Origin: Bacteroidales bacterium
Lineage (GTDB): Bacteria; Bacteroidota; Bacteroidia; Bacteroidales; GCA-2748055
NCBI GenBank assembly: GCA_029210725.1
Contig: JARGFM010000025.1
Coordinates: forward strand, 1-50,750
Direction of reading: 5' to 3'
Length of the DNA: 50,750 nt
Made by a program: the position numbers and the translations under genes
Shown: one piece after another, positions 28,910 through 39,866 of the stretch
Position numbering within the stretch: the first letter of the stretch is position 1
Layout of the letters: the number at the start of each line of letters is the position of its first letter
Notes under the pieces: generated by a model
Seen by the model: the letters and a program-made list of their open reading frames with translations, nothing else
The model's database searches: none
What the model was told of the DNA's origin: nothing

Positions 28910-29629
28910 CTACTTTTTATGAAGGCCGCACTCTTTATGCAGCTCGTTTTCCCACCACCAGCGGCCGGAACGGATATCCTCCCCGGGTTCAACAGCCCGG
29001 GTACAGGGTTCACAGCCTATGCTGGGAAATCCCTGGTCGTGCAGCAGATTATAGGGAATATTATGCTCTTTGATATAGTCCCGGACCTCCTTTTCGGTCC
29101 AGTTAATCAGGGGGTTGATCTTCACCAGTCCGTTTGCCGCATCCCATTCCACCAGCTTGTTGAAAAATCTGGAAACCGACTGGTCTTTCCGCAGTCCGCA
29201 TATCCAGGCCAGCTTATCTTCGAAAGCCCGGGGCAATTGCGCCACCTTCCGGATGGAACAGCAAAGTTTCCTCTTCTCCACACTGTCATAAAACAGGTTG
29301 ATCCCGTTTTCTGCCACCATCTTCTCCACCTTTATTGCCTCCGGGAAATAGATCTTCATGCGAATTCCAAAATGCTTATTGGTGCGGGCAATCAGGTCAT
29401 AGGTCTCCGGAAAGAGCCTCCCGGTATCCAGAGTAAAAATCTCCGTGTCTTTCTTCTGACGAAGTACCATCTCTGTAAGGACCTGATCTTCCAGTCCGAG
29501 ACTGGTTGAAAGAACAAGATGCTCCCCAAAATGCCGGAGGAAAAAGCCTATTACTTCCGCAGGCCTTTTCTCCTTCAACTCCTCATTCCATTGTGCGATC
29601 TGCACCTCCAACTTAGCGCTTAATTCCAT
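28910..29629 (-). CDS. cysH: Assimilatory APS reductase (CysH, Fe-S type)
   Basis: A 239-residue phosphoadenylyl/adenylyl-sulfate reductase producing sulfite with thioredoxin-like electron donors in the cytoplasm. It has STSLGLEDQVL (40-51), the P-loop-like substrate segment and LDTGRLFPETY. The paired cysteines C123-C124 and C206-x2-C209 hold the [4Fe-4S] cluster that marks APS-using rather than PAPS-using enzymes. The catalytic Cys is C234 in ECGLH at the C-terminus. It lies 18 bp downstream of the MurU-like gene. A second, unrelated APS reductase (AprBA) lies about 8 kb away, so the two may work in different directions or conditions. Confidence 0.93.
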   Translation of the reverse strand: MELSAKLEVQIAQWNEELKEKRPAEVIGFFLRHFGEHLVLSTSLGLEDQVLTEMVLRQKKDTEIFTLDTGRLFPETYDLIARTNKHFGIRMKIYFPEAIKVEKMVAENGINLFYDSVEKRKLCCSIRKVAQLPRAFEDKLAWICGLRKDQSVSRFFNKLVEWDAANGLVKINPLINWTEKEVRDYIKEHNIPYNLLHDQGFPSIGCEPCTRAVEPGEDIRSGRWWWENELHKECGLHKK

Positions 29630-31331: not shown

Positions 31332-32993
31332 ATGATACTGATTGCAGACAGCGGTTCCACCAAGACCGACTGGAGATTGATTAAGGGAGAGGAGATCCGC
31401 AGCATGTCGACCAGGGGCATCAATCCCTACCACTCGAGCAGGAAGGAAATTGAAGAGGAGCTTGATAAACTCGATTTTCAGGGTAATGAGCCTAACATCC
31501 ATGAGATCTATTTCTATGGATCGGGAGTCGCCAATGAAGCGATGAAAGATATTATACACAGCTCTCTTCAAAAGCGCATTGGGGTACACCCCTACATCCA
31601 GGTACAGGATGACCTGCTTGGGGTGGCACGCGCACTTTTCCAGGACAGAAGCGGCATTGCCTGCATCCTGGGAACGGGATCCAACTCAGGCCTGTATAAG
31701 GATGGAAAGATCTCGGATAAGGTTCCGGCCATGGGCTACTCCCTGGGTGATGAGGGGGGAGGTGCCGATATCGGAAAACGGCTGGTAAATGCCCTGCATA
31801 AGAGAAACCTGAGCGATGATCTGAGGGAGGCCATTATCAGGGAGGAGGGACTCTCCATAGACCAGATCCTTGAAAATGTCTATAACAAGCCGCATGCGAA
31901 CAGATACCTGGCATCCTTAAGTGAAATCGCTGCAAAGTATATGGAGCACGGGGAGATCAGGAAGATTGTCTATGCGGCTTTTGAAGATTTTATCGAAAAG
32001 AATATTTCCAAGTACAGCGAATTCGAGGATCTGGAAATTGGTTTTGCAGGATCTGTAGCCTTCTACTTTAAGGAGATCCTGACCGAGGTGATGGGTAAGC
32101 ATCATCTGAAAATCAGCCAGGTGATCCCCTCACCCATCGAAGGCCTGGTATCCTACCATAAAGAGGTCCATACCTCAGAGATGAATGGAACGGTCTCTAT
32201 CACCGAATCTGCCTCCCGGTACGATAACCTGGACCAGATGAGCGTCCGGGAGTTGCTGGAGAATATCAATCAGGAGGACAGCACGGTACACAAGGCGGTA
32301 CATACCATCATCCCCAAAATAGAGAAGCTGGTGGAAGGTATAATACCCAGAATCATGAAAGGAGGCCGTCTTTTCTATGTCGGGGCCGGGACCAGCGGGC
32401 GACTGGGTATTGTCGATGCGTCTGAAATCCCGCCCACTTTTGGTGTTCCCTATGATATAGTAATCGGTATTATTGCTGGTGGCGACAAAGCCATCCGTAA
32501 GGCCGTAGAATCGGCCGAGGATGACTTTCATGGGGCCTGGCGCGATCTGGCTAAATTCAAACCTGGCAAAAATGATGTGGTGATCGGGATCGCTGCTTCC
32601 GGCAGAACTCCCTATGTCATAGGGGCCGTTCAGGATGCCGGGAAACACGGCTTGCTTACCGCCTGTATTACCAACAATCCCAACACCAAACTGGCTGCTG
32701 CTGTGGATTTTCCACTGGTAGCCCTGGTGGGACCGGAATTTGTTACAGGCAGCACCCGGATGAAATCCGGAACTTCACAAAAATTGATCCTGAACATGAT
32801 CACCACCTCCACCATGATCAAACTGGGCCGGGTGAAGGGCAATAAAATGGTGGATATGCAGCTCACCAATGCCAAACTGGTCGAACGGGGTTCGAGAATG
32901 ATCAGTGAGGAGCTGGGCCTCGATATGGATGAGTCGAAAAGGCTCCTGCTGCTGCACGGATCGGTAAGGAAGGTGCTGGACAGTTTCAAATGA
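31332..32993 (+). CDS. murQ: MurNAc/GlcNAc kinase fused to MurNAc-6-phosphate etherase
   Basis: A 553-residue fusion. Residues 1 to about 285 are a BadF/BadG-type ASKHA kinase like MurK/NagK (ADSGSTKTDWRLI, CILGTGSNSGLY, GYSLGDEGGGADIG). Residues about 287-553 are a full MurQ SIS-domain etherase (SASRYDNLDQMSVRELLENI, YVGAGTSGRLGIVDASEIPPTFG with the catalytic Glu, GIAASGRTPYVIGA, TGSTRMKSGTSQK). Together they would phosphorylate MurNAc and cleave the lactyl ether to GlcNAc-6-P plus D-lactate in the cytoplasm. Standard MurQ is about 280-300 residues, so this is a true two-domain protein with no internal stop. It is divergent from the FadR-type gene. Its stop abuts that of qmoC. Confidence 0.9.
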   Translation: MILIADSGSTKTDWRLIKGEEIRSMSTRGINPYHSSRKEIEEELDKLDFQGNEPNIHEIYFYGSGVANEAMKDIIHSSLQKRIGVHPYIQVQDDLLGVARALFQDRSGIACILGTGSNSGLYKDGKISDKVPAMGYSLGDEGGGADIGKRLVNALHKRNLSDDLREAIIREEGLSIDQILENVYNKPHANRYLASLSEIAAKYMEHGEIRKIVYAAFEDFIEKNISKYSEFEDLEIGFAGSVAFYFKEILTEVMGKHHLKISQVIPSPIEGLVSYHKEVHTSEMNGTVSITESASRYDNLDQMSVRELLENINQEDSTVHKAVHTIIPKIEKLVEGIIPRIMKGGRLFYVGAGTSGRLGIVDASEIPPTFGVPYDIVIGIIAGGDKAIRKAVESAEDDFHGAWRDLAKFKPGKNDVVIGIAASGRTPYVIGAVQDAGKHGLLTACITNNPNTKLAAAVDFPLVALVGPEFVTGSTRMKSGTSQKLILNMITTSTMIKLGRVKGNKMVDMQLTNAKLVERGSRMISEELGLDMDESKRLLLLHGSVRKVLDSFK

Positions 32994-34094
32994 CTATTTT
33001 CTTCCGATGGAGCGTGCGTACAGCAGGGCTGTAATGCGATAGAAGATATGCCCCAGCTTGGTAAAAGGCAGGTACATAATCACAAACCATACGGCCACCA
33101 GGTGAAAAAAATAGAGGTGGTAAGCACAGTTCCAGTTGCCAAAACGGGCGGCTTCCACCAAAGTCCCGGACAGGGTCAGAAGACCGATGGCCACCAGCAG
33201 GAGCCAATCGGAATAGCTGCTCTTCCCAAATACTTTCTTATTAAAAAGCCTCTGCCCGACCATAAGGCCCAATCCAGTATAAATCATCAGCGAGGCCAGA
33301 TTCCCCATGATTTTAAAGGGATTTCTGATGGGAAGGGGGTAATTATGACTAATAGTGGCATAGATAGCGTAGATGGTGACCAGGATCAACAGGCTGAATC
33401 CGAAAAAGAGCAGCATATGGGCCAGCTTCCCGGATTTCCTCGACTGGCAGGCAGAGAAAGAGACATGGGAGAAAATCTCCCCCAGCACTTTAAAAACAGG
33501 AAGTTTCTTCATCCCGGATTCACCCGGAGGAGTCTGCCGTTTCATGTCTTTCCAGAACCTTCCGATACCAAGGGATGCCAGCAGATAAAAGAAGAAGGTC
33601 AGGGCAGAAAAACTTATATTCAGCAGGCCGTGTGGAAAAAAAGCTGAGTAATCGACCGCTCCTTCGGGTATCCTGAAAGTACCTCCCAGGACAAGAATTG
33701 CAGTAATCACAAACACGGGAACAGCAATGGCCAGAGGAAGCCAACGGGGTTCGCTTACCAGTCTGCCCAGGAAAGAAGGACGGGCATAGTGCAGGTAGGT
33801 CTTCTGACGAATGGCGGAAATCACGTCGGCGGGTTTTACACCCCGGGGGCAATAAGAGCTGCAATCGCCACACTGATAGCAGAGCCATATGTCCACGTTC
33901 CCGATCAGTTTTTCTTTCAGACCCCAGCCGGACCAGATCATCTCTTTTCGGGGAAAGGGGCGTTCCGCGGGTGCCAGTGAACAGACTGCCGAGCAGTTCC
34001 CGCATTGCATGCACTGATTCAGCCGGGATCCGCTCAGGCGGCTCAACTCCCTTTTAAACAGCAGGTCCGGTTGTATGGTAATAGTCTCTTTCAT
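32994..34094 (-). CDS. qmoC: Quinone-interacting oxidoreductase subunit QmoC
   Basis: A 366-residue membrane subunit. The N-terminal HdrC-like domain has two [4Fe-4S] motifs, C28-C31-C34-C38 and C72-C75-C78-C82, each ending in a Cys beside Pro or Ser. After residue 110 there are about six hydrophobic segments of HdrE/NarI-like cytochrome b type, with histidines at predicted membrane faces (for example KLAHMLLFFG, CAYHLYFFH) that could ligate haem. It links the menaquinone pool to QmoAB. It is slightly shorter than the Desulfovibrio protein as I recall it. It is last in the aprBA-qmoABC cluster, 35 bp after qmoB, and abuts the convergent murQ stop. Confidence 0.92.
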   Translation of the reverse strand: MKETITIQPDLLFKRELSRLSGSRLNQCMQCGNCSAVCSLAPAERPFPRKEMIWSGWGLKEKLIGNVDIWLCYQCGDCSSYCPRGVKPADVISAIRQKTYLHYARPSFLGRLVSEPRWLPLAIAVPVFVITAILVLGGTFRIPEGAVDYSAFFPHGLLNISFSALTFFFYLLASLGIGRFWKDMKRQTPPGESGMKKLPVFKVLGEIFSHVSFSACQSRKSGKLAHMLLFFGFSLLILVTIYAIYATISHNYPLPIRNPFKIMGNLASLMIYTGLGLMVGQRLFNKKVFGKSSYSDWLLLVAIGLLTLSGTLVEAARFGNWNCAYHLYFFHLVAVWFVIMYLPFTKLGHIFYRITALLYARSIGRK

Positions 34095-34129
34095 GTCCGC
34101 TCTAAGCTGGCATAGTTCTGTATCTAACC

Positions 34130-36244
34130 TTACATACTTTTAAATGGGTTGGGGCCGATCAGCTCCATCTCTTCCACATAATCGTTTATGATCTCACGTA
34201 TCTCGTGGTGCCCGGTGATCTCCACGAATTCAGTCCGGATCCGTTCGGGTTCAAGCATCATGGTCTCCAGGGTCTCCTGCAGATTCGCAGCGCGCTGTTC
34301 GGTCAGTTCACTGCCATGAATAAAGTGACATTGGTAATCATCACCTGGCTTGCAACCTATCTGCAGGATACCATCGTATCCGTGGGAGAGTGCATCGGAG
34401 ATCCAGACCTTGTTGATGGAACCCAGGCAGCGTACCGGGATAATCCTGACGAAGGGGCTGTAGCCAAGCCGGTGTATTCCTGCTTCATCCAGTGCCGGGT
34501 AGGCATCGTTTTCACAGACGAAAACCAGGATTCTGGGTTTTTCCTCAAACTCATCGGGTATATGCACAGCCTTGATCATGGCCGAAACACTATGGATATG
34601 GAAATCCGCAAAACCTATGACCCGCTCCGGACAGGAGCCCACACAGATGCCACACCTCCGGCAACGTGCCGGATTAGGCAGCGGAGTCCCTTTTTCGGTC
34701 TCATCATAACTACCGAAGGGACACTCCTCCGTGCAGCGCTTGCAATCGGTACAGCGCTCCATATACAGTTCCGGCCAGGTCATATCCCCGGATCGGGGAT
34801 GGAGCGCTTCTCCCCGCTTTACACACTCGATACTCTGGATGGCCTTCATCATGGCACCTGCACCATCCTCCCCGCTCATTTCCATATCCATAGGTGCCCT
34901 GACCGTACCAGCCGCAAAGATACCGGTACGCCTGGTCTCATAAGGAAAACAGATAAAATGAGAGTCGGAAAAATCATATTCCAGTTCGGGAAGTCCCTTT
35001 CCCAGGCGGTACTGCAGCTGAAGATCCGTGGTCGTATTGGGAACCATCCCTGTAGCAAGTACCACCATGTCGCAGGTAATCCGGATGTGGTTTCCCAGCA
35101 GCGACTGGCTTACTGTAAGCTCCATCTCGTTTCCCAGGTCAGAGACCGTACCGACCACCCCTTTGGTCATAAAAATTGCATCATCGGCCTGTACCATTTT
35201 GTAAAACTCCTCCTGAAACCCCATGGTACGGATATCCCGGTATATGATATAGACCTCGGCACCAGGATTGAGTTCCCTGACATAGAGGGCCTGCTTCAGG
35301 GCAGCACTACAACAGTAGGAAGAACAGTATGAAAGATGCCCGGGGTCCCTCGATCCGGCACATAATATAAACAGAACCCGGTCAGGAAGCTCTTGCTCCT
35401 GCACAAATTGCTCAAATTCTTCCAGTGTTTTCACCCGTGGAGAGCCATAGCCCAGCGACACAAGTTTCTCTGTATTATATGGTTTCCAGCCCGTCGCAGT
35501 AACCACAGCACCAACCTGCACTTCCTCTGCCCCTTTATGATCCAGTGAAACGCGAAAATTTCCAGGTTCCCCGGAGATGGATTCTATCCTGGTGTCCAGG
35601 TAGATCTTCACTCCGGGATGCTGCTCAAGCGCTTCTATCTTCTGAGCTATATCGGGCTCTTTCAGCCTGGAAGCTTCTTCACGCTCCGGAAACATTTTAA
35701 AGATCCTTCCGGCATAACCACCCAGCCTCCGGGATCTTTCCACCAGGTGAACCCGGTAACCTGCTTTTGCCCCTTCCAGGGCCGCTGTGATTCCGGCAAT
35801 GCCCCCACCCACCACCAGGATTTCCGGGGAGGTAGTTTCAGGAATATAGGGAGTATTTTCTTTCCTGGCTTCCAGCTTGGCCAGGATCATCCGTGTCTGA
35901 TCCTCTGCGCACATCTGTGTATCCTCCTGCCCGGGCTCCATCACCCAGGCCACCTGCTCTCTCAGGTTAATCCGCTCCAGCTGAACCCCGTCCATATTAA
36001 ATTCTGCACTTTTCACCCGGGGGGAGCAGGCCGCCACAGCCAGTCGGACGATCCCCATATCGAGAACCTTCCCCTTCAGCTCTGCCAATCCCGGTTCGGA
36101 ACAGAGTGAAGGGTGTTTGATACAGGTAAGCCCCTGATATGCCTCTGTGGCCGCATCCAGAAGTTTATCCACATCCAGGCTCTCACCAATGCTGCAACCG
36201 GTGCATACGGCCAGAGCCATATTTTTCCTTTCATTCCCAGTCAT
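34130..36244 (-). CDS. qmoB: Quinone-interacting oxidoreductase subunit QmoB
   Basis: A 704-residue HdrA-like flavoprotein. The N-terminal region has scattered cysteines (C14, C17, C41, C48). The FAD site is VVGGGIAGITAALEGAKAG (about 144-162). Ferredoxin motifs are C498-C501-C504-C508 and C528-C531-C534-C538. The C-terminal 135 residues form an MvhD/FrhD-like domain (VFVCENDAYPALD, VRCLGSI, QIGCKPGDDYQCHF) that distinguishes QmoB from QmoA and HdrA. Its ATG shares one base with the qmoA stop (TAATG), so translation is coupled. A second in-frame ATG lies eight codons on. It transfers electrons between QmoC and AprBA. Confidence 0.93.
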   Translation of the reverse strand: MTGNERKNMALAVCTGCSIGESLDVDKLLDAATEAYQGLTCIKHPSLCSEPGLAELKGKVLDMGIVRLAVAACSPRVKSAEFNMDGVQLERINLREQVAWVMEPGQEDTQMCAEDQTRMILAKLEARKENTPYIPETTSPEILVVGGGIAGITAALEGAKAGYRVHLVERSRRLGGYAGRIFKMFPEREEASRLKEPDIAQKIEALEQHPGVKIYLDTRIESISGEPGNFRVSLDHKGAEEVQVGAVVTATGWKPYNTEKLVSLGYGSPRVKTLEEFEQFVQEQELPDRVLFILCAGSRDPGHLSYCSSYCCSAALKQALYVRELNPGAEVYIIYRDIRTMGFQEEFYKMVQADDAIFMTKGVVGTVSDLGNEMELTVSQSLLGNHIRITCDMVVLATGMVPNTTTDLQLQYRLGKGLPELEYDFSDSHFICFPYETRRTGIFAAGTVRAPMDMEMSGEDGAGAMMKAIQSIECVKRGEALHPRSGDMTWPELYMERCTDCKRCTEECPFGSYDETEKGTPLPNPARCRRCGICVGSCPERVIGFADFHIHSVSAMIKAVHIPDEFEEKPRILVFVCENDAYPALDEAGIHRLGYSPFVRIIPVRCLGSINKVWISDALSHGYDGILQIGCKPGDDYQCHFIHGSELTEQRAANLQETLETMMLEPERIRTEFVEITGHHEIREIINDYVEEMELIGPNPFKSM

Positions 36245-37506
36245 TACTGCATCGCTTTTAGTGCCGCGGCCGTGGCATCTTTTACCGACGAAGAAACATC
36301 CATAGGCCGTTTACAACAGGCTGCGGGAATTATCCCGGAAGACTGTCCGGGCAGATAAAATCCATATTCGTTTATCTCTAATGCAGCTGAAACAGGAGCA
36401 GGTGTTAATCCCAAAGCCAGCACAACCATATCGAATGAATCCCGTCGCCTGGTACCAAGTGAAATATCTTCCAGTTCCAGAACGACTCCCCTCCCTCCTT
36501 CCGCAGGCAGAATCCGTCCCACCTTTCCCTTGGTAAGTATTATGCGCTCTTTTTCTTCCGCTTTCTTCAGCAGCTTTTCATTTCTGCCAGCAAGTCTAAT
36601 ATCGATATAAAAAATCTCCGCAGTCATCTCCGGATACTCCGCTTCCAGGCTTAAGGCATGTTTCAACGAGGCCGGGCAGCAGACAGTCGAGCAGTATGGC
36701 AGATGATTCATGTCCCGCGATCCTGCACACTGGATAAATGCAATGCGCGATGGCACCTTTCCATCCGATGGCCTGGTCAGCTTGCCATGCTCCCTGGTGC
36801 AGGTGGCCAGCATTCGTTCAAACTCCTGGTTGGTCACCACATCAGCCTCTTCCCGGTACCGGTAATTCTCCAGTTTTGCTGCATCGTAAAGGATCCATCC
36901 GGTGGCTACGATGATCTTCCCGACCTGGATCCCCACCTCTCCGGGCAAGGCATCCAGCTGGATGGCATCGTATTCACAAACTTCCAGACACTTCCCGCAA
37001 TCCTCCCCTTTACAGACATCCGGATCGATGCTGTACTTCATGGGAAAGGCCAGGCCGTTGTTTATATAGGCAGCTTTTTCCCCTGCGGTCCGGCCAATCT
37101 TTGCAGGCCTTTCCTCCGGGCATACCCCGGCACACTTGCCACAGGAGGTGCAATTGTTATTGATTAACCGGGGCTTCAGACGGATGTTCACCATATACCG
37201 GCCATCCGCGCCACACAGATCCTTCAGGCTCGCACCGGTATAATAAGTGATACGAGGATTAGAACGGATTCGCCTGTAGTTGATCTCCAATCCACAGGCC
37301 GGCGGACAAAGCTTGGGAAAATAGTTATTAAAGCGGGATACGTTGCCGCCCAGATAGTTCTCCTTTTCAATCAGCACTACCTGCTTTCCGGCCTCCGCCA
37401 GCTCCACAGCAGCGGTGATTCCGCTTATTCCACCTCCTAAAACTAAGGTTGGATAGTCCAAAGTAAATGCTCTTTTTATAATATTTCGCGTTTGATCATC
37501 TCCCAT
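36244..37506 (-). CDS. qmoA: Quinone-interacting oxidoreductase subunit QmoA
   Basis: A 420-residue HdrA-like flavoprotein. The FAD Rossmann motif LVLGGGISGITAAVELAEAG is at 21-40. The QmoA/HdrA hallmark CPPACGLEINY is at 67-77. Two [4Fe-4S] motifs follow, C119-C122-C125-C129 and C165-C170-C173-C177. A further Cys-rich segment (CAGSRD, CSTVCCPASLKHAL) is shared with HdrA and QmoB. The ATG at 37506 overlaps aprA by 31 bp; a TTG at 37461 (giving MDYPTLVLGGG) lies after the aprA stop and is the more family-like start. It forms the soluble Qmo part with QmoB and passes electrons to or from AprBA. Confidence 0.93.
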   Translation of the reverse strand: MGDDQTRNIIKRAFTLDYPTLVLGGGISGITAAVELAEAGKQVVLIEKENYLGGNVSRFNNYFPKLCPPACGLEINYRRIRSNPRITYYTGASLKDLCGADGRYMVNIRLKPRLINNNCTSCGKCAGVCPEERPAKIGRTAGEKAAYINNGLAFPMKYSIDPDVCKGEDCGKCLEVCEYDAIQLDALPGEVGIQVGKIIVATGWILYDAAKLENYRYREEADVVTNQEFERMLATCTREHGKLTRPSDGKVPSRIAFIQCAGSRDMNHLPYCSTVCCPASLKHALSLEAEYPEMTAEIFYIDIRLAGRNEKLLKKAEEKERIILTKGKVGRILPAEGGRGVVLELEDISLGTRRRDSFDMVVLALGLTPAPVSAALEINEYGFYLPGQSSGIIPAACCKRPMDVSSSVKDATAAALKAMQ

Positions 37507-39353
37507 TTGCCCGATTCAGGATCCCAGCGGCAATTGGCAAATGCTTCCCAGTCCTCTTTCATTCTTGGATAGTCCGTCCGGAAATAGTAGCCCGGCCAGC
37601 GGGTCTCTTCCCGGAAAAGCATGGTCCGGATATGAGATTCCGCCTGCCACATCCGGTGCACATTCTCCCAGCATCGCATAAGCTCATTCAGATCGGCGGC
37701 CGCCAGTTTCTCTGCATCTTCTTTCATAAACTGCAAATACTCCAGTCCCCTGGTCAGCAGCGCCCCGGAGGTCTTAAAGCCCACCGAAGCTCCCCCTGCA
37801 TATTCGTCCATGATCTTTTGGAGACGGAACATAAACATCCTGGGTTTAATGTAGTTAGGGTTTACATCCTCATCATTGGTATAAGCATGGTGCTCCTGGA
37901 AGGTCTTCAAGGGTTGCAGAACCCTCTCTTTCATTGCGGCTGTTTGCTCCTCACTGATTTCGAATGCTTCGGGATGGTCCACGCAGAATGCTATAGCCGC
38001 TTTGCCGGCAATCCGGCCTTCGGTGAAGGATCCGGATGAGAACTTATGAGAGGATGCACCGGCCGCGTCACCGGCCGCAAACAATCCTTTCACGGAGGTC
38101 ATATTATCATATCCCCAGTGGTGTTCCCCGGGAGCCAGATCTTTCGGACCACTTACCCAGGCCCCGGAGGCTCCTGAATGGGAGCTGATAAAGTAGGGCT
38201 CACAGGCTGATATTTCCGAAGGAGTCTCCTCAGGCATGATATTATGGGAAGCCCAGTTCAGAGCCTGGCTCACAGTCATATCCAGAAAATCTTCCCATGC
38301 TTCGGATTCCAGCTCCTTCATTTTTCTCCGGGACTCTTTCTCATCGGGTATCTCCGCTACAAGCTTCTGAATCGCTTCATCGGTACGCATATAAATGGGC
38401 CCGTTCCCTTCTTCCAGTTCCAGCAACATCAGATAATTCCGCAGATTTGCAGGCGTTGGTTTAGAGGTCCCGTAGGGGGCCCAGTTTTCAAGCTCCGACG
38501 ACCGTTTTTCCATATAATCCTCTCCTTTGGCATTGGTGGCCCTGGATTTAAAAAGAAGGAACCAGGCTCCCACAGGTCCGTAGGAGTCCTTAAAGCGGAC
38601 CGGGACAAAGCGAACTTCCTGGCAGGTCATCTCGGCCCCTGCTTTCAGTGTAAAGTAAGTGCTGGCCCCGCTGTTAAAGGGAGGATACCACGACCTTCCC
38701 AGTCCTTCCCCCACAGATCTGGGCCGGAATACATGAACCGCTCCCCCCATCACATCCAGGACCGCCTTGGCTTTGAATACATAGAAAACATTCTCCCTGA
38801 CACTGAAGCCCACAGCTCCCACGCAGCGATCCTCATACATCACCGGTTCGGTGATAAAGACTCGCTCGTAATAGGCACCATCCTCACCAAGCTCCTTCAG
38901 GGCGCTTTTTGCTGCTTCGGAAACAATATTTTTGTAGGATTCCCCGTGGATCATGATCTGCCACCGGCCTTCATTCACGTAGTTGCCCTCTTCATCCTTC
39001 CAGATGGGCAGGCCCCACTTCTCAAACAGATGAACGGAAGAATCCACATGACGGGCAATATTGGCCACCAAATCCTTCCGGGCAATTCCCATCAGGTCGT
39101 TCTTCACATAACTCACATAATCGTCCACGGTATTGTTTCCCTTGCTCAAGCCCAGGTAAAGGTTGATGGCCGACAGCCCCATAGCCACAGCTCCGCTGCG
39201 TTCCATGGCCGCTTTGTCGACCAGGGTCACACGCTGTTTATTCTTTTTTGCCCAGTAAGATGCTTCATAAGCTGCCCCGCAGGCCGCCATGCCACCACCC
39301 AAAATCAACAGGTCGGTTTCCACCACAAGGGTCTTAAAATTATCTGCATTCAT
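37476..39353 (-). CDS. aprA: Adenylylsulfate reductase, alpha subunit
   Basis: A 625-residue flavoprotein of the fumarate reductase superfamily, specifically AprA. FAD motifs are LLILGGGMAACGAAYEAS (15-32) and LFAAGDAAGASSHKFSSGSF (424-443). The APS-site signatures RFVPVRFKDSYGPVGAWFL (248-266) and ISSHSGASGAWVSGP (389-403) are both intact and place likely catalytic Arg253 and His392. These blocks are characteristic of AprA and absent from fumarate reductase or L-aspartate oxidase. It interconverts APS and AMP plus sulfite in the cytoplasm, with electrons through AprB. It lies 16 bp after aprB. The length is a little below that of the Desulfovibrio subunit. No sat gene is seen in the window. 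Confidence 0.96.
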   Translation of the reverse strand: MNADNFKTLVVETDLLILGGGMAACGAAYEASYWAKKNKQRVTLVDKAAMERSGAVAMGLSAINLYLGLSKGNNTVDDYVSYVKNDLMGIARKDLVANIARHVDSSVHLFEKWGLPIWKDEEGNYVNEGRWQIMIHGESYKNIVSEAAKSALKELGEDGAYYERVFITEPVMYEDRCVGAVGFSVRENVFYVFKAKAVLDVMGGAVHVFRPRSVGEGLGRSWYPPFNSGASTYFTLKAGAEMTCQEVRFVPVRFKDSYGPVGAWFLLFKSRATNAKGEDYMEKRSSELENWAPYGTSKPTPANLRNYLMLLELEEGNGPIYMRTDEAIQKLVAEIPDEKESRRKMKELESEAWEDFLDMTVSQALNWASHNIMPEETPSEISACEPYFISSHSGASGAWVSGPKDLAPGEHHWGYDNMTSVKGLFAAGDAAGASSHKFSSGSFTEGRIAGKAAIAFCVDHPEAFEISEEQTAAMKERVLQPLKTFQEHHAYTNDEDVNPNYIKPRMFMFRLQKIMDEYAGGASVGFKTSGALLTRGLEYLQFMKEDAEKLAAADLNELMRCWENVHRMWQAESHIRTMLFREETRWPGYYFRTDYPRMKEDWEAFANCRWDPESGKWEMIKREIL

Positions 39354-39369
39354 TGTTCAGAAATATTAT

Positions 39370-39783
39370 TTAGAGGGAATCGGGTTCTGTTCTCAGCACC
39401 GGCGATTTCAGATCCTCTGTTCCGGTGGTAAATCCGGCATCGGGATCAATGGATCCCTCAGGCTTTGTCCGGATCGGGAATTTGAAACGTTTAACTACCT
39501 TGTTCCTGAAGCGGACCGCCCACATGATGGAGTCGGAGCTTCTTAAGGGCTGCACCACCCCTCCCAGGGGCATGAAATCGGCGTAACCCCTGATTTCAAT
39601 GGCCTGGGTCGGACAGATCTTCACGCAGCTGTAGCATTCCCAGCACATATCCACAGCCCTGTTGAAGGCCTTGTTAGTCTCTCTATCCAGAACCATCAGA
39701 TCGTTGGGACAGATGTACTGGCAGGCAGTACGATCCTGCGCCTTGCAGCCATCGCACTTTTCATTGATTACAAAACTCGGCAT
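39370..39783 (-). CDS. aprB: Adenylylsulfate reductase, beta subunit
   Basis: A 137-residue iron-sulfur protein. Cluster cysteines are C10-C13-C21-C25 and C47-C50-C53-C57, the two-cluster arrangement of AprB including the eight-base-spaced third Cys of the first set. Trp48, immediately after C47, coincides with the Trp known in Archaeoglobus AprB to sit between the cluster and the AprA flavin. The C-terminal tail (FPIRTKPEGSID, DLKSPVLRTEP) is the arm that wraps AprA, though shorter than in Desulfovibrio. It is first in the cluster, with a candidate host promoter 22 bp upstream. Confidence 0.95.
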   Translation of the reverse strand: MPSFVINEKCDGCKAQDRTACQYICPNDLMVLDRETNKAFNRAVDMCWECYSCVKICPTQAIEIRGYADFMPLGGVVQPLRSSDSIMWAVRFRNKVVKRFKFPIRTKPEGSIDPDAGFTTGTEDLKSPVLRTEPDSL

Positions 39784-39804
39784 CGGTAGTTCGTTGTTGA
39801 ATCA

Positions 39805-39812
39805 CAAACATA
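39805..39812 (-). promoter_or_regulatory. Candidate Bacteroidota promoter for aprBA-qmoABC
   Basis: Minus-strand TATGTTTG matches TAnnTTTG exactly, 22 bp before the aprB ATG, in an AT-rich 83-bp gap after the ClC gene. No clear -33 TTG was found, so this is tentative. Confidence 0.45.
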
Positions 39813-39849
39813 ATTAATTAATACTTTAGAATTATTTTAAAATCAGGGT

Positions 39850-39865
39850 GCCGGTCTGACCCGGC
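39850..39865 (-). terminator. Weak hairpin after the ClC gene
   Basis: GCCGG-GTCAGA-CCGGC on the minus strand begins one base after the ClC stop and is followed by ACCCTGATTTT. It may partly separate the ClC and apr transcripts. The T tract is short and offset, so termination is doubtful. Confidence 0.3.
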
Positions 39866-39866
39866 G

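What the first reader, a model, noticed from the sequence alone, without database searches (positions are those of the whole stretch)
32994..39783. Complete AprBA-QmoABC module in a Bacteroidota chromosome without sat or dsr nearby
All five subunits are intact, with every cluster Cys motif, the AprB Trp48 and the AprA substrate motifs present. The order aprB-aprA-qmoA-qmoB-qmoC is that of Desulfovibrio. They are embedded among ordinary Bacteroidota housekeeping genes, with coupled starts (TAATG between qmoA and qmoB). AprBA-Qmo is known from sulfate reducers and some sulfur oxidisers; a Bacteroidota carrier is unusual to my knowledge. Three roles are possible: quinol-driven APS reduction, reverse AMP-dependent sulfite oxidation conserving energy through Sat, or sulfite detoxification.
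Basis: partly seen in the sequence, partly recalled or inferred. Interest (0 to 1): 0.88.

Follow-up and report, generated by a model that had tools for sequence, protein, structure and literature searches.

The report
Bacteroidales APS reductase without sulfate respiration
A bacterium from a group not known for sulfate breathing carries the complete machine that sulfate breathers use to turn activated sulfate into sulfite, but seems to lack the usual enzymes before and after it, so it may use the machine to make sulfite for its own purposes, perhaps for sulfur-containing membrane lipids.

Summary
aprB-aprA-qmoA-qmoB-qmoC (39783 to 32994, minus strand) is intact, with its catalytic and docking residues. 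It is not a lone oddity: 26 of 393 sampled genomes of the order carry AprA, in 12 families, 6 of 6 in the window's family. The 29 Bacteroidales rows in an AprA tree form one fully supported group. None of the 26 has Sat-type ATP sulfurylase (PF01747) or siroheme sulfite reductase (PF01077); six relatives outside this group, picked by eye, have sat near apr. The carriers instead have CysH (24 of 26) and mostly CysD (19 full length); cysH lies within 10.1 kb of aprA in 14 of the 24. So sulfite looks like an end or start point. My best reading, not shown, is menaquinol-driven reduction of CysDN-made APS to sulfite for biosynthesis; 23 of 26 carriers encode SulA, which builds sulfonolipids from cysteate. 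Weak points: SulA is common without Apr, and no known cysteate synthase turned up in the window's own genome. Sulfite oxidation in reverse remains a serious rival.

The parts
39370..39783 (-). aprB, APS reductase beta subunit (two 4Fe-4S clusters)
   Evidence: TIGR02060 197.9 bits over 135.65; PF12139; K14, D17, W48 and 8 Cys present
37476..39353 (-). aprA, APS reductase alpha subunit (FAD)
   Evidence: TIGR02061 857.9 bits over 641.75; PDB 2fja/1jnr adenylylsulfate reductase subunit A, E 1e-228; active-site residues kept
36244..37506 (-). qmoA, HdrA-like flavoprotein of the Qmo complex; its ORF start overlaps the end of aprA, so the true start may lie a little further in
   Evidence: position between aprA and qmoB; HdrA-type models; homologues in the same place in relatives
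34130..36244 (-). qmoB, HdrA-like flavoprotein with C-terminal FlpD/MvhD domain
   Evidence: PF02662 131 bits; two CxxCxxCxxxCP motifs
32994..34094 (-). qmoC, HdrC-like Fe-S part plus membrane part
   Evidence: NF038018 350.8 bits over 300
28910..29629 (-). cysH, thioredoxin-type APS reductase; same APS-to-sulfite reaction by an unrelated enzyme
   Evidence: TIGR02055 251.9 over 235.3; on one contig with aprA within 10.1 kb in 14 of the 24 apr+ genomes that have cysH
39784..39866 (-). intergenic stretch upstream of aprB with a TATGTTTG box that fits the Bacteroidota -7 consensus (consensus recalled); no clear -33 box
   Evidence: sequence read; suggestive only

Best explanation
This is an AprBA-QmoABC module of the Qmo-linked (sulfate-reducer) type, apparently acquired once in the Bacteroidales and cut loose from sulfate respiration. 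Sulfate is activated to APS by the assimilatory GTP-driven CysDN, not by Sat. AprBA then most likely reduces APS to sulfite and AMP with menaquinol electrons delivered by Qmo, alongside the thioredoxin-driven CysH that does the same reaction. No siroheme enzyme was found to take sulfite on to sulfide, so sulfite is an end product used in biosynthesis, the best candidate use being cysteate and then capnine-type sulfonolipids. Shown: gene integrity, purifying selection, one group in the AprA tree, no Sat and no siroheme reductase match, and CysDN, CysH and SulA in the genome. Inferred: single acquisition, direction, electron flow and the fate of sulfite.
For: 0 of 26 apr+ genomes match PF01747 and 0 of 26 match PF01077; the same searches ring in 5 and 11 of 14 control genomes. 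CysH-type hits in 24 of 26; the two without are 72-75% complete. CysD and CysN of the window's genome are over the TIGR cut-offs. cysH and aprA share a contig within 10.1 kb in 14 of 24, in 6 families and in different arrangements. Both reductases look APS-specific: CysH by TIGR02055, AprA by the Gln said to clash with PAPS (PMC10322725 passages). SulA of the window's genome: 598 bits to PDB 28eh 'Cysteate-C-fatty acyltransferase' and 618 to 7u7h (named a 7-keto-8-aminopelargonate synthetase-like enzyme; it holds the SQLYAKSLPMP stretch of the SulA primer), against 253 for serine palmitoyltransferase; the Lys in YAKSLPM, which by the K281A primer is SulA Lys281, is kept. SulA in 23 of 26 apr+ genomes at E 1e-120. 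Archaeal-type cysteate synthase TIGR03844 over cut-off in 5 apr+ genomes. In apr+ genome G233, cysH-cysD-cysN is followed on the same strand by a threonine/cysteate synthase-like gene. Across the order SulA and CysH co-occur: 212 both, 63 SulA only, 26 CysH only, 92 neither of 393, and 214 of 238 CysH+ genomes lack PF01077 (not corrected for kinship). aprA pN 0.053 and pS 0.698 against G367. Precedent for an AprAB-like enzyme in assimilation: methanogen PAPS reductase (PMC10322725, passages).
Against: No known cysteate synthase in the window's own genome: its six PF00291 hits have as best models CysK, ThrC, a second ThrC, TrpB, a TrpB-like enzyme and a hydroxyaspartate dehydratase-like enzyme. 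CysH already does the reaction, so AprBA looks redundant. SulA is common without Apr (252 of 367 apr- genomes), so it does not explain Apr; 3 of 26 apr+ genomes show no SulA hit (G279 at 92% completeness, G307, G370), and 63 genomes have SulA with neither CysH nor Apr. Apr itself is absent from 214 of 238 CysH+ genomes. CysDN also feeds PAPS in some carriers: an APS kinase sits beside CysDN in G283 and is fused to CysN in G176. Five of the ten unlinked cysH+ genomes have room on the apr contig and still no cysH there (G279, G131, G233, G346, G283). The nearest rows outside the Bacteroidales in the AprA tree (support 93, not starred) include isolate UBA2156; a provisional genus of that label is reported with oxidative DsrAB only (PMC10591310 passage), which leans towards oxidation. 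Multihaem or other non-siroheme sulfite reductases were not searched.
Confidence: 0.43

Rival explanations
1. Reverse operation: AprBA oxidises sulfite plus AMP to APS, Qmo passes the electrons to menaquinone (for example on to fumarate reductase), and APS is removed by CysDN running backwards or by another route. Sulfite is an energy source or is detoxified.
For: The protein surroundings of the active site are almost identical in reducers and oxidisers (PMC2211403 abstract and passages). Qmo-type Apr also occurs in sulfur oxidisers of Apr lineage II (same passages). The nearest outside rows in the AprA tree include isolate UBA2156, and a genus of that label is reported with oxidative DsrAB. 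With no siroheme sulfite reductase, some sulfite removal route is plausible.
Against: Sat, the enzyme that makes ATP from APS in such oxidisers, has no match in 26 of 26. CysDN couples the forward reaction to GTP hydrolysis (established for E. coli, recalled), which disfavours reversal. CysH in the same cell would re-reduce the product in a futile cycle. No source of sulfite was found, but none was searched for.
Confidence: 0.3
2. Incomplete or disguised sulfate respiration: APS reduction serves as an electron sink and sulfite is excreted or reduced by a non-siroheme enzyme.
For: Qmo couples AprBA to the quinol pool as in sulfate reducers (family knowledge). Several carriers bear project labels that I recall as anoxic sediment or seep samples (CSMAG, SM23_62; labels, settings recalled).
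Against: No PF01077 match in 26 of 26. Sulfate activation costs two or more ATP equivalents and the menaquinol-to-APS step yields about nothing (potentials recalled), so stopping at sulfite loses energy.
Confidence: 0.12
3. Misassembly, contamination or a recent stray transfer from a sulfate reducer.
For: The genome is a draft of 70 contigs, and the named Bacteroidales relatives are metagenome assemblies.
Against: Same flanking genes in separate assemblies G007 and G367; 26 genomes in 12 families; one group at SH-aLRT 100.
Confidence: 0.02
4. Another role of the AprBA-Qmo redox pair, for example balancing the quinone pool against an APS/sulfite pool in both directions, or acting on a substrate close to APS.
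For: Qmo subunits diverge faster than AprA (outside the genus QmoA 42-53% identity, full-length AprA 72-85%), which would fit a changed redox partner.
Against: All APS-binding and electron-transfer residues looked at are kept.
Confidence: 0.13

Closest known systems
AprBA-QmoABC of sulfate-reducing bacteria and of Apr lineage II sulfur oxidisers
   Same: Gene set, gene order, subunit anatomy, active site, Trp48, Lys14/Asp17 loop
   Different: No Sat and no PF01077 match in the genome or in 25 other carriers; in six outside relatives picked by eye sat lies near apr, here cysH does
Kapabacteria UBA2268 and Chlorobia, Bacteroidota with a Dsr pathway
   Same: Same phylum in GTDB; an apr-based pathway is reported for them
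   Different: Those carry DsrAB (PMC10591310, PMC10494364 passages). Bacteroidetes-labelled rows L100, L107 and L109, whose class I did not determine, fall elsewhere in the AprA tree; L100 and L109 have sat beside apr, L107 was not scanned
Methanothermococcus thermolithotrophicus PAPS reductase (PDB 8a8o)
   Same: AprAB-like enzyme used for assimilation instead of respiration
   Different: That one reduces PAPS (PMC10322725 passages); the window AprA is far closer to A. fulgidus AprA (764 against 319 bits), keeps the APS signature Gln and has Qmo
CysDN-CysH assimilatory sulfate reduction
   Same: APS to sulfite with the same intermediates; cysH is 3.4 kb away
   Different: AprBA is unrelated to CysH and is expected to draw on quinol; no siroheme sulfite reductase completes the route

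Membership tests
Dissimilatory-type APS reductase AprBA | AprA and AprB equivalog profiles | tested here: met
   TIGR02061 and TIGR02060 over cut-off
Dissimilatory-type APS reductase AprBA | FAD/APS active-site residues, two 4Fe-4S clusters, AprB Trp48 | tested here: met
   residue roles from PMC2211403 and PMC10322725 passages, E141 recalled
Dissimilatory-type APS reductase AprBA | APS reduction or sulfite oxidation activity | not testable with these tools
   needs protein
QmoABC complex | QmoC equivalog; QmoA and QmoB HdrA-like, QmoB with MvhD/FlpD; cluster qmoABC after aprA | tested here: met
   NF038018 over cut-off, PF02662, order in relatives; no Qmo-specific model was listed for QmoA/QmoB
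Canonical dissimilatory sulfate reduction | Sat-type ATP sulfurylase | tested here: not met
   0 of 26 apr+ genomes, PF01747
Canonical dissimilatory sulfate reduction | DsrAB | tested here: not met
   0 of 26 apr+ genomes, PF01077
Apr/Sat sulfite oxidation (Apr lineage II oxidisers) | Sat running in reverse | tested here: not met
Apr lineage I (AprM type) | aprM instead of qmo, AprB without the elongated Lys14 loop | tested here: not met
   qmoABC present and K14/D17 present; aprM itself was not searched
Assimilatory sulfate reduction to sulfide | CysDN and CysH | tested here: met
Assimilatory sulfate reduction to sulfide | siroheme sulfite reductase | tested here: not met
Sulfonolipid (capnine) biosynthesis | SulA/CapB cysteate acyltransferase | tested here: met
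   G000 C40: 598 bits to PDB 28eh (cysteate-C-fatty acyltransferase), 618 to 7u7h, motif Lys kept; activity not tested
Sulfonolipid (capnine) biosynthesis | cysteate synthase (TIGR03844 or CapA type) | tested here: not met
   none among six PF00291 hits (E 1e-15) of the window's genome; TIGR03844 present in 5 other apr+ genomes
Sulfonolipid (capnine) biosynthesis | 3-ketocapnine reductase and lipid product | not tested
   no search made; lipid needs mass spectrometry

The most novel reading that the evidence does not exclude
A broad set of Bacteroidales has turned a respiratory enzyme pair into a biosynthetic one: a membrane-quinol-driven sulfite factory (CysDN, then AprBA-Qmo alongside CysH) whose product goes into cysteate and sulfonolipids. 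If so, apr and qmo genes in metagenomes are not evidence of sulfate respiration in this order.
Probability: 0.28. Interest if true: 0.85.

Novelty: new variant of a known kind. Interest (0 to 1): 0.62.

Why it matters
aprA is commonly used as a marker of sulfate reduction and sulfur oxidation (PMC5099947, start of abstract in the listing). Here a supported group of AprBA-Qmo sits in genomes without the Sat and DsrAB of the textbook pathways. A census built on dsrAB-carrying genomes (PMC10591310) would miss it by design, and an apr-based one could miscall it. The side result, that 214 of 238 CysH-bearing genomes of the order have no PF01077 match while CysH tracks SulA, suggests a testable answer to where these bacteria get the sulfite for sulfonolipids, lipids linked to inflammation in the passages of PMC11211663.

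Tried and rejected
A stray or chimeric block was rejected because separate assemblies share the flanks and the Bacteroidales AprA rows are one group. Classical sulfate reduction and Sat-linked oxidation were rejected for lack of Sat and PF01077. Reading direction from residues led nowhere. Other shared neighbours of apr exist (c7 to c10, c12 to c16 and others, mostly in 2-3 families each); the ones whose sequences I read look like housekeeping genes by eye, none plainly tied to sulfur, and they were not profiled. A defence-system scan of CysH and QmoB gave only a distant BrxP match to CysH. SulA as an explanation of Apr by co-occurrence is weak (23 of 26 against 252 of 367, p 0.04, not corrected for kinship). 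Strict vertical descent was not fully upheld: an 11-genome five-marker tree and the AprA tree agree on G098+G203, G125+G223 and G000+G007, but AprA puts G014 outside a group at 100/100 where the markers join it to the window's family at 99/99, and in that small AprA tree the window's family is not itself recovered with support; in the 95-row tree it is, at 83. In the passages read, a mud-volcano paper and a soda-lake paper named no apr in Bacteroidales.

The AprA tree is a quick one and I added no Apr lineage I or Chlorobia rows to it; it holds 23 of the 26 apr+ genomes (G052, G307 and G075 are partial and left out) plus six named Bacteroidales rows, one of which (L061) is titled Chlorobiota. 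15 of the 26 apr+ genomes were given to the PF00291 search, and not every hit was profiled.
Full report
1. Observation. The window is the whole of contig C25 of a 3.81 Mb, 70-contig, 98.6% complete draft. The five ORFs lie at the stated coordinates and in the stated order. AprB, AprA and QmoC exceed their NCBIfam equivalog cut-offs. QmoA and QmoB are HdrA-like and QmoB has the FlpD/MvhD domain. Aligned with A. fulgidus AprA (PDB 2fja/1jnr, 764 bits), the residues for FAD and APS are kept: L60, N64, E128, W222, R253, H392, and Q132, the position whose Gln is said to clash with PAPS (roles from passages of PMC2211403 and PMC10322725; E141 recalled). These seven are invariant in an alignment of 13 Bacteroidales AprA. 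AprB keeps W48 and the K14/D17 positions proposed to dock Qmo. aprA is under strong purifying selection (pN 0.053, pS 0.698 against G367, by a script of mine).

2. Surroundings. Upstream of aprB, on the same strand, is a ClC channel gene; two separate assemblies of the genus keep it (77 and 85% identity) and the four genes beyond it. A thioredoxin-type APS reductase, cysH, lies at 28910-29629, 3.4 kb beyond qmoC. Between them are a MurU-like gene, a GntR regulator and a protein with a MurQ-like C-terminal half.

3. Distribution. In 393 genomes of the order, 24 have AprA over cut-off; G307 and G075 have long fragments at contig ends, giving 26 in 12 families and 13 genera. No control genome is over the cut-off (0 of 14). 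All 6 sampled members of the window's family have it. qmoC follows qmoB in 15 of 16 fetched loci that run past qmoB, the exception being G279.

4. Descent. In a quick ML tree of 95 AprA rows, the 29 Bacteroidales rows are one side of a branch at SH-aLRT 100. Their nearest rows are isolate UBA2156 (titled Desulfobacteraceae), a Planctomycetota and a Myxococcales bin (93, not starred). Against five markers in 11 genomes AprA is broadly but not fully congruent; G014 conflicts with support. My reading, an inference: one acquisition, mostly vertical descent with loss, perhaps some transfer inside the order.

5. What is missing. PF01747 finds no Sat and PF01077 no siroheme sulfite or nitrite reductase in 26 of 26 apr+ genomes, 20 of which are at least 90% complete; the same searches ring in 5 and 11 of 14 control genomes. 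In six relatives outside the Bacteroidales group that I chose because an ORF of the right size and look lay near apr (L070, L071, L082, L087, L100, L109), that ORF is a Sat. This was a choice by eye, not a random sample; other outside loci were not scanned.

6. What is there. CysH-type hits occur in 24 of 26 and full-length CysD-type hits, judged by hit span, in 19 of 26; CysD and CysN of the window's genome are over their TIGR cut-offs. cysH and aprA share a contig within 10.1 kb in 14 of the 24, in 6 families and several arrangements. Of the other ten, five have apr on a contig under 7 kb or within 2 kb of an end (G098, G228, G153, G052, G367); the other five (G279, G131, G233, G346, G283) have longer apr contigs and cysH elsewhere. 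In G233 cysH, cysD and cysN are followed on the same strand by a PALP protein that resembles threonine synthase (170 bits, cut-off 303) and cysteate synthase (124 bits, cut-off 324.9); G279 has a 60% identical protein on a contig other than that of its cysH, cysD and cysN.

7. Fate of sulfite. The window's genome encodes a SulA-like enzyme (598 bits to PDB 28eh, cysteate-C-fatty acyltransferase; 618 to 7u7h; 253 to serine palmitoyltransferase). The Lys said to distinguish SulA from serine palmitoyltransferase (Lys281, PMC9304779 passages) is kept by position in the primer motif. Bacteroidota make cysteate from phosphoserine by CapA or with an archaeal-type cysteate synthase (PMC10191378 passage). 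The archaeal type is over cut-off in G103, G203, G271, G176 and G283. It was not found in the window's genome, whose six PF00291 hits have other best models; the threonine-synthase-range hits of G007, G125 and G223 of its family, and of G014, are ThrC. Over 393 genomes, SulA (E 1e-120) is in 275, CysH (E 1e-30) in 238 and PF01077 in 26. SulA and CysH co-occur (212 both, 63 SulA only, 26 CysH only, 92 neither; p 1e-24, not corrected for kinship), and 214 of 238 CysH+ genomes lack PF01077. So in most CysH+ genomes sampled the APS route seems to end at sulfite, unless a non-siroheme reductase, which I did not search for, goes further.

8. Mechanism. Shown: an intact, selected AprBA-Qmo module; CysDN, CysH and SulA genes; no Sat and no siroheme reductase match. 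Inferred: CysDN makes APS; AprBA-Qmo reduces it with menaquinol, CysH with thioredoxin; sulfite goes to cysteate and sulfonolipid. Respiration that stops at sulfite costs more than it yields (recalled energetics). Oxidation in reverse is chemically open but lacks Sat and would run against CysH. The UBA2156 row, whose label is also that of a genus reported with oxidative DsrAB only (PMC10591310 passage), speaks for oxidation. APS also feeds PAPS in some carriers (APS kinase in G283 and G176). Why 24 of 238 CysH+ genomes keep AprBA-Qmo as well is not explained.

9. Prior work. In the passages I read, Bacteroidota with a Dsr pathway are Chlorobia and Kapabacteria UBA2268 (PMC10591310, PMC10494364), and a 2018 study is cited there for Dsr-pathway genes in Bacteroidota without naming the class. 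The Zodletone study counts Bacteroidota among sulfate reducers (PMC9040765 passages). My seven paper searches, of which I saw the listings and opened thirteen papers for passages, showed no report of a Sat-less, Dsr-less AprBA-Qmo in Bacteroidales nor of CysH as the sulfite source for sulfonolipids; the library lacks most subscription papers and lists were capped.

10. Verdict. Confirmed observation; the interpretation shifts from a lone odd carrier to a variant spread over 12 families of the order, whose role is most likely sulfite supply (0.43), with sulfite oxidation the main rival (0.30).

Noticed in passing
order-wide sample, 393 genomes: CysH is in 238 genomes but PF01077 siroheme reductases in only 26, and CysH tracks SulA; assimilatory APS reduction in Bacteroidales may mostly stop at sulfite.
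   Followed up: partly
L211:5486-9911 (G233 C60): Run cysH-cysD-cysN-PALP on one strand, the last gene between threonine synthase and cysteate synthase in profile scores; a candidate new type of cysteate synthase.
   Followed up: partly
window 31332-32993: Protein with a MurQ-like C-terminal half and an N-terminal half that looks like an N-acetylglucosamine kinase, next to a NanR-like regulator and MurU; in other families MurU and a kinase-like gene (c6, read by eye) border apr-qmo.
   Followed up: no
L053 (G000 C57), L213, L214, L215: cysD-cysN lies beside SusC/SusD-type genes (SusD by Pfam in L213 and L214; by eye or by likeness in the others), as if sulfate activation were tied to an uptake locus.
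   Followed up: no
L039 (G279): qmoC is not found after qmoB although the contig goes on.
   Followed up: no
Bacteroidales apr loci: Outside the window's genus QmoA is only 42-53% identical to the window's, full-length AprA 72-85%.
   Followed up: no
L253:842-3193 (G000 C18): A second threonine-synthase gene beside a gene that looks like an ornithine-cyclodeaminase relative (read by eye), reminiscent of diaminopropionate synthesis pairs.
   Followed up: no
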